A stretch of DNA of 51,744 nucleotides from an uncultured Cetobacterium sp. (GTDB lineage Bacteria; Fusobacteriota; Fusobacteriia; Fusobacteriales; Fusobacteriaceae): contig NZ_CAMQYW010000002.1 in the NCBI RefSeq assembly GCF_947039425.1, forward strand, positions 1-51,744. The letters run 5' to 3'. A program made the position numbers and the translations under genes. Of this stretch, positions 1,594-15,637 are shown in pieces; position 1 is the first letter of the stretch; every line of letters begins with the position of its first letter. Below the pieces are notes generated by a model that saw only the letters and a program-made list of their open reading frames with translations, had not been told where the DNA came from and made no database searches.

Positions 1594-2004
1594 ATGTATA
1601 TAGAAAATATAGGTAATCACTTAAAAATGCATGAAATAAAACCCTCATATCAAAGAATGAAAATTTTTGAATATTTATTAGATAATAAAACTCATCCAAC
1701 AGTAGATGAGATATATAAGGCGTTGTCACCAGAGATACCTACATTATCAAAAACAACCGTTTATAATACTTTGAATCTTTTTATGGAAAAAAAGATAGCA
1801 AGAGTAATAATAATAGAAGAAAATGAAACAAGATATGATGTAGATATGGGTGAACATGCACATTTTAAATGTGAAAGTTGTAAGAAAGTTTTTGATATAC
1901 CTTTTCAAATAGAAAATTTAGATATAGAAGGTTTGAAAGATTTTAAGATAAATGAATATCATATTTATTTTAAAGGAATTTGTCCAACATGCTTGAATAA
2001 ATGA
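1594..2004 (+). CDS. perR: Peroxide-responsive repressor PerR (Fur family)
   Basis: A 136-aa Fur-family metalloregulator with an N-terminal winged helix (about 1-75) and C-terminal dimerisation domain. The regulatory metal site of B. subtilis PerR is reproduced at constant spacing: H34, D82, H88, H90 and D101 (B. subtilis H37, D85, H91, H93, D104). Aspartate at the last position is the mark of PerR, whereas Fur has glutamate. The structural zinc cysteines are C93, C96, C130 and C133. In PerR, peroxide oxidises the Fe-binding histidines and releases DNA. It is first in an operon with superoxide reductase and rubredoxin, and a Per-box-like palindrome lies upstream. Confidence 0.88.
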   Translation: MYIENIGNHLKMHEIKPSYQRMKIFEYLLDNKTHPTVDEIYKALSPEIPTLSKTTVYNTLNLFMEKKIARVIIIEENETRYDVDMGEHAHFKCESCKKVFDIPFQIENLDIEGLKDFKINEYHIYFKGICPTCLNK

Positions 2005-2035
2005 TATAAATTAACAGAAAATTTAGGAGGCTCTC

Positions 2036-2407
2036 ATGAAAAAATTTGATATTTTAAAAGTTAAAGATTATCCAGTAATACTAGAAGCGTTAATAGTTGA
2101 TGATGAAAATGTAGTATTAGAAGGAGTAGAGCATTTACAAGAAAAGAGAGAAGATGCTACAGTTGAAAAACATGTTCCTTTTATAGAAGAAAAAGAGGAT
2201 GGATATTTAGTAAAAGTAGGGAAAGAAGTAGCACATCCAATGCTAGAAAATCATTATATTCAGATGATAGAAATATGCATTGATGATTTTTTATATAGAA
2301 AATATTTAAAACCTGGAGAAGCTCCTGAAGCTTATTTTAGAGTGCCAAAAGGTGGAAGTATTTGTGCTAGGGAATATTGTAATATTCATGGATTGTGGAG
2401 TAACTAA
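2036..2407 (+). CDS. Superoxide reductase, class III-like (desulfoferrodoxin without centre I)
   Basis: Reduces superoxide to peroxide in the cytoplasm without releasing oxygen, using an Fe(His)4(Cys) site. The ligands are H46, H67, H73, H118 and C115 in the signature [11 protein letters not shown]; the catalytic E44-K45 pair precedes H46. At 123 aa it has the length of two-domain desulfoferrodoxin, but the first 43 residues contain no cysteine, so the Fe(Cys)4 desulforedoxin centre I is lost. That matches the class III type described from Treponema. It lies between perR and rubredoxin with its own AGGAGG site; rubredoxin is the likely electron donor. Confidence 0.9.
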
Positions 2408-11355: not shown

Positions 11356-11427
11356 AAATATCATTTTATAAAAAAATATGTTACTATTTGGAATATGCAA
11401 ATATTTATAGAAATTCGGGGGGATAAT

Positions 11428-12816
11428 ATGAATACGACAGCAGCAACAATTTTGAAGTTATTATTTCAATCACCTATGACAGATGAGGATATTGGTGAAT
11501 ATATAAAAATAGAAAAAGCAGGCATTTATAAAAATATTTGTTTAATAAATGATCTTTTAGAAAAATATAATTTTAAAAAGATAGAAAAAATACAAAAAGA
11601 GTATAAAATGTTATTAACAAGGAATGAAAGAGAAAAATTTTATGATAAAATTGAATTTCTTTCTTTAGATGAAAAAATTGATTATTTATACATAAAATTT
11701 TTACATATAGGAATATTGAATTTAGAAGAGGAAAAAAAGATCTTAGATGTATCTCGAAGTACGATAACTCGAACATTTAAAGAAGTAAAAGAGATATTTG
11801 ATGGAAATGGATCTAAAATTGAGTATTTACACGGAAAAGGTATGAAATTAGTAAAGATATCAGAGTTAGAAAAGAGAGAATTTTGTGTGAAAATAATGAA
11901 ATTTTTAATGATGGAAGGATTTTATTCAAATCCTTTAAAAAATTTAATAGAAGAGATTACAAGTATTGAAATAGAAGAAAGGTTTAGAAAAATCAATGAA
12001 ATTTTTAAAAAAAATGAAATTTTATTTAATTTTCCATCTTTCTTTTTTTGTTATGCTTTAGAAATAGGAGCTCATAAATTTGGAAAGTTTAAATTGTTTG
12101 AAACTAATTTAGATTTTATTCCTTGTGAGCTAATTGAAAATGAGAATAAATTTTGTTTAGAATATAAAAGTATGTTGAATAATTTAATATATAGATTAAA
12201 AATTAAAGAGGATTGGACAGAAAAAGAGACAATATTAAAAGTCGAAAAATTATATAAAAAAATAAAAGAAAAAATAGATATAGATTATATTGATCCTAAA
12301 ACAAAAGAGATGTTAATATATAATATTTATTTAGGGTTATTTAAAAAAGAAAAAAATATTTTAAAGATTAAAAAAGTTAATATGAAAGAAACAGATCAAT
12401 TTTTAACAAATGAGATAAATATATTAATAAAAGATTTAGACATTGAATTATATCGATCAGATATGTTAATACTTACACAAATTATAAAAAAAATAATAAT
12501 AGAAAATAAACTTAAAAAAATTAATGTTTTGATTTTAATAAATGAATTAACAATTAATCATTATTTTAAGCTTCTTCATGATTTGAAAAAAAGATATCCT
12601 ACAGCAAACTTAAAAATTGATGCTTTTTATTTTTATAAATTAAATGGAATACAAAACTTTACAGATTATCATTTAGTTATTGGAGAAGATGAACTAGAGA
12701 TACAAAATTATAAAAAAACTAATATAAATTTATTTTCGTTAAATGAGATTCAAGATGTTATAGATAATTATGCAATAGAAAAAACTTTTTATAATTTTAA
12801 AAGGAAAAATAAGTGA
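11428..12816 (+). CDS. Large helix-turn-helix regulator, Mga/BglG-like, target unknown
   Basis: A 462-aa protein rich in Lys, Ile and Glu, with no signal peptide or membrane segment. The N-terminal part looks like two DNA-binding domains: MTDEDIGEYIKIEKAGIYKNICLI-type (about 15-40) and a clearer helix-turn-helix ILDVSRSTITRTFKEVKEIF (about 108-130). The long helical remainder resembles PRD-containing regulators (Mga, BglG, MtlR), but I see no definite PRD phosphohistidine motif, so the class is tentative. The start ATG 11428 follows GGGGGG. It ends 54 bp before the encapsulin cargo gene on the same strand, so it may control or be co-transcribed with that locus. Confidence 0.55.
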   Translation: MNTTAATILKLLFQSPMTDEDIGEYIKIEKAGIYKNICLINDLLEKYNFKKIEKIQKEYKMLLTRNEREKFYDKIEFLSLDEKIDYLYIKFLHIGILNLEEEKKILDVSRSTITRTFKEVKEIFDGNGSKIEYLHGKGMKLVKISELEKREFCVKIMKFLMMEGFYSNPLKNLIEEITSIEIEERFRKINEIFKKNEILFNFPSFFFCYALEIGAHKFGKFKLFETNLDFIPCELIENENKFCLEYKSMLNNLIYRLKIKEDWTEKETILKVEKLYKKIKEKIDIDYIDPKTKEMLIYNIYLGLFKKEKNILKIKKVNMKETDQFLTNEINILIKDLDIELYRSDMLILTQIIKKIIIENKLKKINVLILINELTINHYFKLLHDLKKRYPTANLKIDAFYFYKLNGIQNFTDYHLVIGEDELEIQNYKKTNINLFSLNEIQDVIDNYAIEKTFYNFKRKNK

Positions 12817-12870: not shown

Positions 12871-13197
12871 ATGTTAAAAGGATTAAGTGAAAGTGCAATA
12901 GATTTAAATTTTGCAATTGAAAGTTTAAAAGAAGAAATTATAGCGGTTAATGACTATAATCAAAGAGCAGAAATAGTAAGTGATCCAGAATTGAAAGAGA
13001 TTTTAATGCATCATAGAAATGAAGAGATGGAACATACAGCAATGTTAATTGAGTGGATTAGAAGAAATAATGGAACTTTTGGAAAAGAGATTCAAGAATA
13101 TCTTTTTATAAAAGAAGGAATTGTTTCTAAAGAAGAGGAAAATATTCATGAAGAAAAAATAAGTTCAATATCTTTAAATATAGGATCATTAAAATAA
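12871..13197 (+). CDS. Encapsulated ferritin-like protein (EncFtn), encapsulin cargo
   Basis: A 108-aa two-helix protein of the encapsulated ferritin family. It oxidises Fe(II) inside an encapsulin shell, which then stores the mineral. The motif HHRNEEMEHTAMLIEWIRRN (about 47-66) carries the E52/H55 metal ligands (EExEH), and an acidic first helix LKEEIIAVNDYNQRAE supplies the partner glutamate. The tail SISLNIGSLK matches the short hydrophobic cargo-loading peptide that docks on the shell interior; an acidic, flexible linker precedes it. The shell gene follows after 19 bp. AGGAGGTG precedes the ATG with a longish 10-nt gap. Confidence 0.92.
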   Translation: MLKGLSESAIDLNFAIESLKEEIIAVNDYNQRAEIVSDPELKEILMHHRNEEMEHTAMLIEWIRRNNGTFGKEIQEYLFIKEGIVSKEEENIHEEKISSISLNIGSLK

Positions 13198-13216
13198 GGA
13201 TAAAGGAGGATGGATT

Positions 13217-13996
13217 ATGGATTTTTTAAAGAGAGAATTAGCTCCTATAAGTAATAAAGCTTGGATGGAAATAGAAAAACGAGCTAAAGATGTTTTGAGT
13301 ACTCAATTGACTGCTAGGAGATTTGTAAAAGTTACAAATGTTTCTTGTGAAAATAGTGGTGGAATAACTACTGGAAGAATAAAGATAGAAAAAAATGAAG
13401 ATAAAGAGTTTGGAATATATAAAATTCAACCATTTGTTGAAAATAGAGTAAATTTTACTTTAGATAGATGGGAATTAGATAATGTGGATAGAGGTGCTAA
13501 AGATATAAATTTTGATACATTAGACATGGCTTTAAAAGAAGCTGCAAAATTTGAAGAAAAATCAATTTACTATGGACTTGAAAAAGCTTGTATTGTAGGA
13601 ATTTTAAATAAAGAGTTATTAGAGTTTGGAAAAACAGAGGCAGAAACATTAAAAAGTGTTATGTATGGAATTTCTAAAATTAAAAATCAAAGTTTTTCAT
13701 CAGGACCATATGCGTTAGTAGTTGGATTAGAAAAATATATTTATTTAAACACAATTAATCCAAATGATTCACTTTTAAAAAAAATAGAAAGAGTGCTTGG
13801 AACACCAGTAATTATATCTCATAATATAACAGAAGGAGTTTTATTACCATATAATAAGGATGATATAGAGCTAGTACTAGCAAAAGATTTCTCTATTGGT
13901 TATACAGAGCATTCAAGCAAAGAGGTTAAACTTTTTATAACAGAAACTTTTACATTTAGAAGTTTAGATCCAATTTCAATAGTTTGTTATAAATAA
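13217..13996 (+). CDS. Encapsulin shell protein, family 1 (HK97-fold, linocin M18/CFP29 type)
   Basis: A 259-aa encapsulin that self-assembles into an icosahedral protein compartment. It aligns throughout by eye with Thermotoga maritima encapsulin: N-terminal FLKRELAPISNKAW (cargo-binding helix), FTLDRWELDNVDRG (about 79-93), SGPYALVVG, and C-terminal LFITETFTF. Size (about 30 kDa) fits T=1 shells, but the triangulation number cannot be read from sequence. It is the last gene before a bidirectional terminator and follows its EncFtn cargo, behind AAAGGAGGAT. The HK97 fold is phage-related, but no other phage gene is near. Confidence 0.96.
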   Translation: MDFLKRELAPISNKAWMEIEKRAKDVLSTQLTARRFVKVTNVSCENSGGITTGRIKIEKNEDKEFGIYKIQPFVENRVNFTLDRWELDNVDRGAKDINFDTLDMALKEAAKFEEKSIYYGLEKACIVGILNKELLEFGKTEAETLKSVMYGISKIKNQSFSSGPYALVVGLEKYIYLNTINPNDSLLKKIERVLGTPVIISHNITEGVLLPYNKDDIELVLAKDFSIGYTEHSSKEVKLFITETFTFRSLDPISIVCYK

Positions 13997-13998
13997 AA

Positions 13999-14030
13999 AA
14001 GGAAAGGGACATCCCTTTCCTTAATTTTTT
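13999..14030. terminator. Bidirectional terminator between encapsulin and outer-membrane protein genes
   Basis: Stem GGAAAGGG/CCCTTTCC with loop ACAT, extended by AA/TT pairs; T runs follow on the plus strand (TTTTTTTATT) and, through the A run before the stem, on the minus strand. It serves two converging transcripts. Confidence 0.88.
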
Positions 14031-14032
14031 TA

Positions 14033-14740
14033 TTACATATCGAAGTTGTAACCAACTGATAAAGTTACAGCATCGTAGTTATTACTATGTTTTTGTCCTT
14101 CAGCTTTAACTTTAGCATAAGTAGTACCATACATTAAGTCAACGTTAACGTTGTTGTATTGCATACCTGCACCAGCAGCCCAATAAGCACCATCATCAAT
14201 AGTAGTATTTATTTTTGGATTACTTATATCTTTTGCATCAAAGTTAAATGAGTAACCTGCATTAGCTTTAATATATGGTGTAAATGGTAAGTCAAAATTA
14301 GTAACATTATATTTAGCCGTTAAATATAATGGCATTGATTTGTACTCAGCACCTTGAGTATTTTTAACTCCTTCACCTTTTCTTTTAGCATGATCTTGAT
14401 ATGCTAAACCAAGTCCTAAATCTATATTATTATAAGTTTTATATCCTTCAATAGCAAATTGGTATCCTAAGTCTTTAGTATCACTATTCAATAAAGAAGA
14501 GCTACTATATTTAGACCAAACATCTCCTCCAACTCTAACGTTAATGTAACCTGGAGTTCTTTCAGCAACTACTGGAGCAACTACTGGAGTAACAACAGCA
14601 ACAACTTCCTCTACAACTGCAGTTGGTTCAGCAACAACCTCTTTAGAACTAGTTGTAACTGGTTGAGCTATAATTTCTTTTGCTTGAGCAACACTTGCAA
14701 TTGCAAATAGCGAACAAGCTAATAATGCTAATTTTTTCAT
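14033..14740 (-). CDS. Outer-membrane beta-barrel protein (paralog A)
   Basis: A 235-aa exported protein. Residues 1-20 form a Sec signal peptide ending SVAQA before KEII. A Val/Pro/Glu-rich linker (about 25-63) follows, then alternating strands typical of a small 8-10-stranded barrel: YINVRVGGDVWSKY, GLGLAYQDHAKR, YIKANAGYSFNF, DGAYWAAGAGMQY, and a C-terminal strand VTLSVGYNFDM. It is a close paralog of the gene at 14954-15637. Function (porin, adhesin or structural) is unknown. It has its own promoter and a structured 5' UTR. Confidence 0.8.
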   Translation of the reverse strand: MKKLALLACSLFAIASVAQAKEIIAQPVTTSSKEVVAEPTAVVEEVVAVVTPVVAPVVAERTPGYINVRVGGDVWSKYSSSSLLNSDTKDLGYQFAIEGYKTYNNIDLGLGLAYQDHAKRKGEGVKNTQGAEYKSMPLYLTAKYNVTNFDLPFTPYIKANAGYSFNFDAKDISNPKINTTIDDGAYWAAGAGMQYNNVNVDLMYGTTYAKVKAEGQKHSNNYDAVTLSVGYNFDM

Positions 14741-14762
14741 TTTATTCCCTCCTCAAGTAAAT

Positions 14763-14785
14763 AAATTCTGCAAAAACCAGAATTT
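14763..14785 (-). promoter_or_regulatory. 5'-UTR hairpin of outer-membrane protein A mRNA
   Basis: A perfect 8-bp stem AAATTCTG/CAGAATTT with a 7-nt loop lies just upstream of the GAGGAGGG ribosome site on the minus strand. With no T run next to it, it looks like an mRNA stability or translation-control element rather than a terminator. Confidence 0.5.
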
Positions 14786-14823
14786 TGTAAGATTACTTTT
14801 GGCCGTTTACCGGTCATTGACCT

Positions 14824-14853
14824 ATGATACTACTAATTCAGAACAAAAGTCAA
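14824..14853 (-). promoter_or_regulatory. promoter of outer-membrane protein A gene
   Basis: On the minus strand TTGACT (14853-14848), 18-bp spacer, TATCAT (14829-14824). The perfect palindrome GGTCA-A-TGACC (14812-14822) lies immediately downstream, over the expected transcription start. Confidence 0.65.
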
Positions 14854-14910
14854 GAGGTAAAGTTAAAAACTGTTATAAAATGGTTTTTTGGTCATCTTTA
14901 ATGTAATGAA

Positions 14911-14940
14911 ATAAAGGAGAGAGCCACATTAAGACTCTCC
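14911..14940 (-). terminator. putative terminator of outer-membrane protein B gene
   Basis: Read on the minus strand: GGAGAG, loop, CTCTCC, then TTTATTT. The stem is short and the T run interrupted, so it is weaker than the others in the window. Confidence 0.5.
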
Positions 14941-14953
14941 CCATTTTTTATTT

Positions 14954-15637
14954 TTACCAAATATTAAATTTATAACCTAAAGAAAAAGTAACTCTTTGAT
15001 AATCATTATTAAATTTTTCTTTTCCGTTAGAATCGGTAACATCCATTTCAGCATAATTGATTCCATATAAAATATCTGCTGTAAAATTATCATATTCTAA
15101 ACCTATTCCAGCAGCCCAATAAGCGCCGTCATCAATACTTGAATTAAAACCTTTAACATCATCTTCATCAAAATTAAACGAGTATCCAGCATTAGCTTTT
15201 AAATATGGAACAAAAGGCATATTCCAGTAATTTAAATCATATTTTGCTGTAGCATAAATAGGGAATGATTTATATTCTCCTCCATCTCGGTCTCTTTTGG
15301 CATGATCTTGATATGCCATTCCTAAACCAATGTCAAAATATTTCCAATGTCTCATTGCTTCAATAGCAATTTCATAACCAGATTCATCGGCATCTTTTTC
15401 TAAACGATAACCATTTCCAGAGTGTCTATCATATTCAGACCAAAAATCCCAACCAAATTTTAGATTAATATATCCTAGTGGCATATCAGGAACCATAACT
15501 ATAGGAACAATTTCCTCTACCATTGCTGGTTCATTCATCATCTCTTTAGACATAGTTGGCTCAGTTATCATTTCTTTAGCGTATGAAATACTTGTAACAG
15601 CAACTAATGAAAAAAGTACTAGTGCTAACTTTTTCAT
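14954..15637 (-). CDS. Outer-membrane beta-barrel protein (paralog B)
   Basis: A 227-aa exported protein with signal peptide ending SISYA before KEMI, a Met/Glu/Pro-rich linker, and the same barrel strands as its neighbour: YINLKFGWDFWSEY, GLGMAYQDHAKRD, YLKANAGYSFNF, IDDGAYWAAGIGLEYDN, ending FSLGYKFNIW. The terminal aromatic residue suits recognition by the BAM machinery. The pair clearly arose by tandem duplication, with the linker diverged most. Ribosome site AAGGAGG is on the minus strand upstream of the ATG. Function is unknown. Confidence 0.8.
   Translation of the reverse strand: MKKLALVLFSLVAVTSISYAKEMITEPTMSKEMMNEPAMVEEIVPIVMVPDMPLGYINLKFGWDFWSEYDRHSGNGYRLEKDADESGYEIAIEAMRHWKYFDIGLGMAYQDHAKRDRDGGEYKSFPIYATAKYDLNYWNMPFVPYLKANAGYSFNFDEDDVKGFNSSIDDGAYWAAGIGLEYDNFTADILYGINYAEMDVTDSNGKEKFNNDYQRVTFSLGYKFNIW

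What the first reader, a model, noticed from the sequence alone, without database searches (positions are those of the whole stretch)
12871..13996. Complete encapsulin iron-storage compartment in a probable Fusobacteriales genome
Seen: a 108-aa EncFtn with EExEH metal site and a C-terminal SLNIGSLK tail, 19 bp before a family 1 encapsulin. Known: EncFtn oxidises Fe(II) only efficiently inside or with the shell, and such tails dock cargo. Inference: an autonomous iron mineralising compartment replacing or adding to ferritin in an anaerobic diderm. The cargo is one of the shortest possible layouts: helices, acidic linker and tail, with the tail at the very last residue.
Basis: partly seen in the sequence, partly recalled or inferred. 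Interest (0 to 1): 0.72.

Follow-up and report, generated by a model that had tools for sequence, protein, structure and literature searches.

The report
Encapsulin iron compartment in Cetobacterium relative
Two neighbouring genes encode an iron-oxidising enzyme and the protein shell it docks into, a known type of bacterial iron-storage capsule; it is complete and conserved in this group of fish-gut-type anaerobes, with one unusual change in the enzyme's iron gate.

Summary
Window 12871-13197 encodes a 108-aa encapsulated ferritin (EncFtn) ending in SLNIGSLK; 19 bp later 13217-13996 encodes a family 1 encapsulin shell, followed by a strong terminator. All ferroxidase-centre residues are present. 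The pair occurs in 26 of 99 Fusobacteriota genomes (27 copies), always adjacent. The tail is kept without one amino-acid change in the 11 pairs of the window's genus despite silent changes and a variable linker. The genus contains genomes labelled Cetobacterium. This is a new member of a well-known kind. "Replaces ferritin" fits this genome but is no rule in the family (six genomes have both; Fisher p = 0.27). "Autonomous" is not supported. Assembly, loading and iron storage are inferred, not shown.

The parts
12871..13197 (+). EncFtn (encapsulated ferritin) cargo, 108 aa; ferroxidase residues E22, Y29, E52, H55 (R. rubrum E32, Y39, E62, H65); outer-site residues H47, E51, E54; entry site E21 kept, E34->I24 and W38->D28 lost
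13171..13194 (+). codons of the C-terminal cargo-loading peptide SLNIGSLK (residues 101-108)
   Evidence: 0 amino-acid versus 121 nucleotide differences over 55 pairs in the genus
13203..13211 (+). ribosome-binding site (AAAGGAGGA) of the shell gene in the 19-bp spacer
13217..13996 (+). family 1 encapsulin shell protein, 259 aa; W85 = T. maritima flavin-stacking W87
13999..14022 (.). strong (10-bp stem) bidirectional terminator-like hairpin that closes the two-gene unit
   Evidence: 3 terminator-like sites found, 0.2 expected in shuffles
11395..12816 (+). 473-aa protein, Mga/BglG-like regulator by eye (no Pfam or NCBIfam hit), 54 bp upstream on the same strand; stands here only in the window's species. 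Possible but untested regulator; context, not a proven part
1594..2004 (+). only Fur/PerR-family regulator found in the genome (context)
2036..2407 (+). superoxide reductase (desulfoferrodoxin family) directly after Fur/PerR; in sister genera ferritin FtnA and often rubrerythrin follow here, in this genus they do not (context)

Best explanation
A two-gene EncFtn/encapsulin iron-storage and iron-detoxification compartment. EncFtn decamers oxidise Fe(II) at a di-iron centre formed between subunits; their C-terminal SLNIGSLK tails dock in the hydrophobic groove inside a probably 60-subunit (T=1) shell; Fe(III) is mineralised in the shell lumen. The shell probably binds a flavin on its outside through W85, as T. 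maritima encapsulin does. In this Cetobacterium-group anaerobe, which lacks FtnA ferritin, the compartment is probably the main large iron store, working alongside two Dps proteins and the Fur/PerR-superoxide reductase system, and is used mainly when oxygen or peroxide reaches the cell. Shown here: genes, residues, conservation, gene inventory. Inferred: assembly, loading, flavin, T number, activity and physiology.
For: EncFtn and shell profile hits well over Pfam cut-offs; closest solved relatives are EncFtn of N. europaea, R. rubrum and H. ochraceum, and T. maritima encapsulin at 33-34% identity. AlphaFold models: shell pLDDT 78, Foldseek best match T. maritima encapsulin E 1e-22, with T=1 family 1 shells ahead of T=3/T=4 shells; EncFtn two helices (7-35, 39-81) then disordered linker and tail, best matches all EncFtn. 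All catalytic residues invariant in 27 Fusobacteriota copies and 7 outside. Pair adjacent in all 26 carrier genomes, 2-33 bp apart. Tail under purifying selection and alike across genera. Shells form one clade, support 98/96, in a limited sample. Flavin tryptophan in 27/27 shells, against 10% in the Pfam family per PMC8086157. No FtnA in this genome; two Dps.
Against: No experiment. The entry-site glutamate and tryptophan are lost, so kinetics may differ from known EncFtn. No Fur or PerR box was detectable upstream and no clear promoter, so the link to iron or oxygen stress is by function only. Cargo-groove fit was judged only from conservation of the N-terminal helix (50% identical to T. maritima, against 33% overall), not by docking. 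The draft genome is 94% complete, so a ferritin gene could lie in a gap, though the ten sibling carrier genomes also show none.
Confidence: 0.9

Rival explanations
1. The compartment is chiefly an oxygen/peroxide defence device (iron is the electron donor that removes oxidant), and stored iron is a by-product.
For: Host lineage is anaerobic; superoxide reductase, Fur/PerR, Dps and rubrerythrin-like genes are in the same genome; a 2024 review (PMC11202242) notes that some encapsulin ferritins are viewed as secondary stores induced by oxidative stress.
Against: No peroxidase cargo, no stress operon around the pair, no PerR box found; absence of FtnA leaves no other large iron store.
Confidence: 0.3
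2. The cargo's altered entry site makes it a weak or specialised ferroxidase (another metal, or a slow gate), so it is not a main iron store.
For: Glu34 to Ile/Gln and Trp38 to Asp across the genus, whereas Glu/Asp34 is described as highly conserved (PMC11202242).
Against: Catalytic di-iron ligands and the outer acidic sites are all kept; in R. rubrum EncFtn, E31A and E34A raise activity (PMC11202242), the opposite of weakening.
Confidence: 0.1
3. The shell gene is a domesticated or active phage capsid, not an encapsulin.
For: Encapsulins share the HK97 fold with phage capsids.
Against: Family 1 encapsulin equivalog model hit at twice its cut-off, EncFtn partner conserved in all carriers, housekeeping neighbours (recG, proS, rluD, rnhB, identified by eye) and no phage genes beside it.
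Confidence: 0.01

Closest known systems
Thermotoga maritima encapsulin with ferritin-like cargo (3DKT, 7KQ5, 7MU1)
   Same: Family 1 shell of 258-265 aa, ferritin-like cargo, anaerobic host, flavin-stacking Trp87 (W85 here), C-terminal loading peptide
   Different: 33% shell identity; E-loop hardly conserved (14%); fivefold-pore His187/Tyr188 are Asn/Asp here; loading peptide SLNIGSLK instead of NTGGDLGIRK
Rhodospirillum rubrum EncFtn (Rru_A0973; 5DA5)
   Same: Two-helix fold, ferroxidase ligands E32, Y39, E62, H65, outer-site H57, E61, E64, C-terminal tail
   Different: Entry-site E34 is Ile and W38 is Asp in the window, similar to the studied E34A variant (6SV1); 140 aa there against 108 aa here
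Haliangium ochraceum Enc:EncFtn (7OE2)
   Same: Tail GSLGIGSLR docks in the shell groove; window tail SLNIGSLK fits the same pattern
   Different: Shell about 30% identical; E34 and W38 kept there
Fusobacteriaceae relatives (26 carrier genomes incl. the window's; e.g. Ilyobacter MAG with two copies)
   Same: Same two-gene unit and tail family
   Different: Window copy is the most diverged in its genus (62% shell identity to siblings)

Membership tests
Family 1 (classical) encapsulin shell | HK97-fold Linocin_M18 / encapsulin equivalog profile over curated cut-off | tested here: met
   PF04454 205 bits (cut-off 24.3), NF041155 204 bits (cut-off 100); Foldseek
Family 1 (classical) encapsulin shell | Cargo gene directly upstream in the same operon | tested here: met
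   19-bp gap, same strand; adjacent in all 26 carrier genomes
Family 1 (classical) encapsulin shell | Self-assembly into an icosahedral shell | not testable with these tools
   Only sequence and fold similarity to T=1 shells
EncFtn | Two-helix half-ferritin fold | tested here: met
   PF22277 E 7.7e-29; model helices 7-35 and 39-81; EncFtn structures are the best matches
EncFtn | Di-iron ligands Glu32, Glu62, His65 and Tyr39 | tested here: met
   E22, E52, H55, Y29
EncFtn | HxxxEExEH outer-site motif | tested here: met
   H47-E51-E52-E54-H55
EncFtn | Entry-site (EncFtn C site) Glu31/Glu34; common but not present in all members, so not defining | tested here: not met
   E31 kept, E34 is Ile. [quoted passage not shown]
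EncFtn | C-terminal targeting peptide | tested here: met
   SLNIGSLK, conserved under purifying selection
EncFtn | Fe(II) oxidation and loading into the shell | not testable with these tools
   needs purified proteins
Flavin-binding encapsulin (T. maritima type) | Trp87 that stacks on FMN | tested here: met
   W85 in window, W in 27/27 Fusobacteriota shells; flavin itself not testable here

The most novel reading that the evidence does not exclude
In the Cetobacterium group the EncFtn iron gate was dismantled (Glu34 and Trp38 lost) after or along with loss of FtnA from the Fur/PerR-superoxide reductase operon, giving a natural 'ungated', faster encapsulated ferroxidase with a flavin-bearing shell that serves as the cell's main iron store.
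Probability: 0.25. Interest if true: 0.5.

Novelty: new member of a known kind. Interest (0 to 1): 0.33.

Why it matters
It documents a complete encapsulin iron store in a fish-gut-type anaerobic lineage for which no held paper mentions encapsulins, in genomes that lack ordinary ferritin. The genus-wide loss of the entry-site glutamate and tryptophan is a natural version of mutants made in R. rubrum EncFtn, so it allows a direct test of what that gate does, and the sister genera that have both FtnA and encapsulin, only one, or neither are a ready comparison for what each store is for.

Tried and rejected
Other cargo with the same tail in the genome: a degenerate DNA pattern for L-x-[IV]-G-x-L-K gave 7 hits, no more than the reversed control; of the six others none is a convincing cargo tail (one sits next to a stop but ends a 446-codon hydrophobic, probably membrane-protein frame; one, L138, was not resolved by the script). 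Fur or PerR boxes upstream: best matches no better than in shuffles, in the window or relatives. Functional partners by gene neighbourhood: neighbours are housekeeping, transport or porin genes and differ between genera. Encapsulin versus FtnA exclusion as a family rule: rejected, [6 both, 20 encapsulin only, 14 FtnA only, 22 neither], Fisher p = 0.27, relatedness not corrected. Phage capsid reading: rejected. The original entry-site paper (PMC7667983) is not held; its results are taken from the review PMC11202242.

Full report
What is there. The window holds two adjacent plus-strand genes: an EncFtn cargo (12871-13197, 108 aa) and a family 1 encapsulin shell (13217-13996, 259 aa), 19 bp apart, each with a Shine-Dalgarno sequence. 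A strong bidirectional terminator-like hairpin follows the shell at 13999-14022, so the unit ends there. Profile searches are unambiguous. The closest solved sequences are EncFtn proteins (N. europaea 3K6C, R. rubrum 5DA5 and variants, H. ochraceum) and T. maritima encapsulin. AlphaFold models made only from window and the search for related loci sequences (shell pLDDT 78; EncFtn helix core above 90, linker and tail disordered) match T=1 family 1 shells and EncFtn structures respectively.

Which organism. The window is contig 2 of a 2.05-Mb, 94% complete draft genome. Cetobacterium belongs to Fusobacteriaceae, Fusobacteriales. The other genera are unnamed in the tool, apart from one matching an Ilyobacter MAG.

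How widespread and how conserved. Of 99 Fusobacteriota genomes, 26 have EncFtn and an encapsulin; one has two pairs, and in all 27 copies EncFtn lies directly upstream at 2-33 bp. Two further weak Linocin_M18 hits lack EncFtn. The shells form one clade against the Bacillota, Thermotogota, Synergistota and Cloacimonadota sequences sampled (98/96); outside sampling was thin. Within the window's genus the pair lies in a fixed place, recG-proS-[a gene that looks like a sigma factor by eye, opposite strand]-EncFtn-shell-FomA-like porin-rluD-rnhB (housekeeping names by eye). The window differs: the sigma-like gene is absent, and a 473-aa Mga/BglG-like regulator of a family that is expanded in the genus stands 54 bp upstream of EncFtn on the same strand. 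Whether it controls the pair is unknown.

The tail. In the 11 copies of the genus SLNIGSLK does not change by one amino acid, although 121 nucleotide differences are counted over the 55 sequence pairs and the linker before it varies freely in length and sequence. Other genera keep the pattern [ST]-L-x-[ILV]-G-x-[LMI]-K; only genus g5 departs (SDNIFLK, SDDIFLK). The motif occurs once in the six-frame translation of the window. It agrees with the T=1 consensus DGSLGIGSLKG and the H. ochraceum peptide seen bound to its shell (PMC7925596, PMC8791618). The shell's N-terminal arm and first helix, part of the groove, are with residues 76-100 its best conserved stretch (50-52% identity to T. maritima against 33% overall).

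The ferroxidase centre and the gate. Catalytic residues (R. rubrum E32, Y39, E62, H65) and the outer sites (H57, E61, E64) are all present in the window and in every relative checked. The proposed iron entry site is not intact: E31 is kept, but E34 is Ile in the window and Gln in the ten siblings, and W38 is Asp in all eleven. Genus g4 has Asp/Val; other genera and seven outside sequences have Glu with mostly Trp (g11 Phe); the second copy in the Ilyobacter MAG has Ile/Arg, apparently an independent loss. A 2024 review calls Glu34 (or Asp34) highly conserved and reports that E31A and E34A in R. rubrum raise ferroxidase activity, read as removal of a gate (PMC11202242). The window protein is therefore predicted, by inference only, to be a less gated ferroxidase. 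This is the most distinctive point of the finding.

The flavin site. T. maritima encapsulin carries FMN on its outside, stacked on Trp87 (W90 in another paper's numbering); Trp is found there in about 10% of the Pfam family, and carriers were noted to be almost all anaerobes (PMC8086157, PMC8610991). The residue is W85 in the window and Trp in all 27 Fusobacteriota shells, within the stretch RWELDN. Flavin binding is likely; its role is open even in T. maritima.

Does it replace ferritin? The window genome has no FtnA-type ferritin. Its clear PF00210 hits are two Dps proteins, and the weaker ones are taken as rubrerythrin-like proteins, not individually identified. In sister genera FtnA, often with rubrerythrin, sits behind Fur/PerR (often with superoxide reductase); in the window's genus that operon is Fur/PerR-superoxide reductase alone (window 1594-2407, 11 kb upstream of the shell gene) and FtnA is nowhere found. 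So the encapsulin is the only large ferroxidase-linked store visible in this genome. As a family rule replacement fails: 6 genomes have both, 20 encapsulin only, 14 FtnA only, 22 neither (Fisher p = 0.27), and FtnA is also missing from genera without encapsulin.

Isolated EncFtn is an active ferroxidase; what it cannot do alone is store mineral (PMC5012862). 'Autonomous' is unsupported: no release partner is encoded nearby and release needs electrons. The cargo is the shortest of its genus but ordinary in the family.

Verdict. A real, complete and conserved EncFtn/family 1 encapsulin unit: a new member of a known kind, with a natural loss of the entry gate that deserves a bench test. No held paper mentions encapsulin together with Cetobacterium or Ilyobacter, and the two that mention it with Fusobacteria are on other topics. 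The 2021 census of 31 bacterial phyla (PMC8346489) does not name Fusobacteria in its text, but its tables were not readable here, so absence from the literature is not shown.

Noticed in passing
window 11395-12816: 473-aa Mga/BglG-like regulator without Pfam or NCBIfam hit, from a family with up to 11 copies per genome in this genus; in this species alone it stands 54 bp upstream of the encapsulin pair in place of a sigma-factor-like gene found in nine of the ten siblings (the contig of the tenth ends short of it).
   Followed up: partly
window 1594-2407: The only Fur/PerR-family gene found in the genome, followed by a superoxide reductase gene; sister genera carry FtnA and often rubrerythrin in the same place, an apparent operon reduction in this lineage.
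   Followed up: yes
L028 and L007 (genome G045, Ilyobacter MAG): Two EncFtn/encapsulin pairs in one genome; the second EncFtn has lost E34 and W38 (Ile, Arg) and has a one-residue insertion between the helices, suggesting a specialised second copy.
   Followed up: partly
L025, L026 (genus g5): Cargo tails SDNIFLK/SDDIFLK depart from the usual motif and lack its glycine, together with strongly diverged shells; possible co-evolved docking.
   Followed up: no
L027 (G085) and L029 (G054): Weak Linocin_M18 hits (26-41 bits) in 301-codon open frames without EncFtn, possibly phage capsids or another HK97-fold family.
   Followed up: no
window 14033-15637: Two tandem small outer-membrane beta-barrel genes with FomA-like signal regions on the minus strand, directly after the encapsulin terminator; copy number varies (1-2) within the genus.
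   Followed up: no
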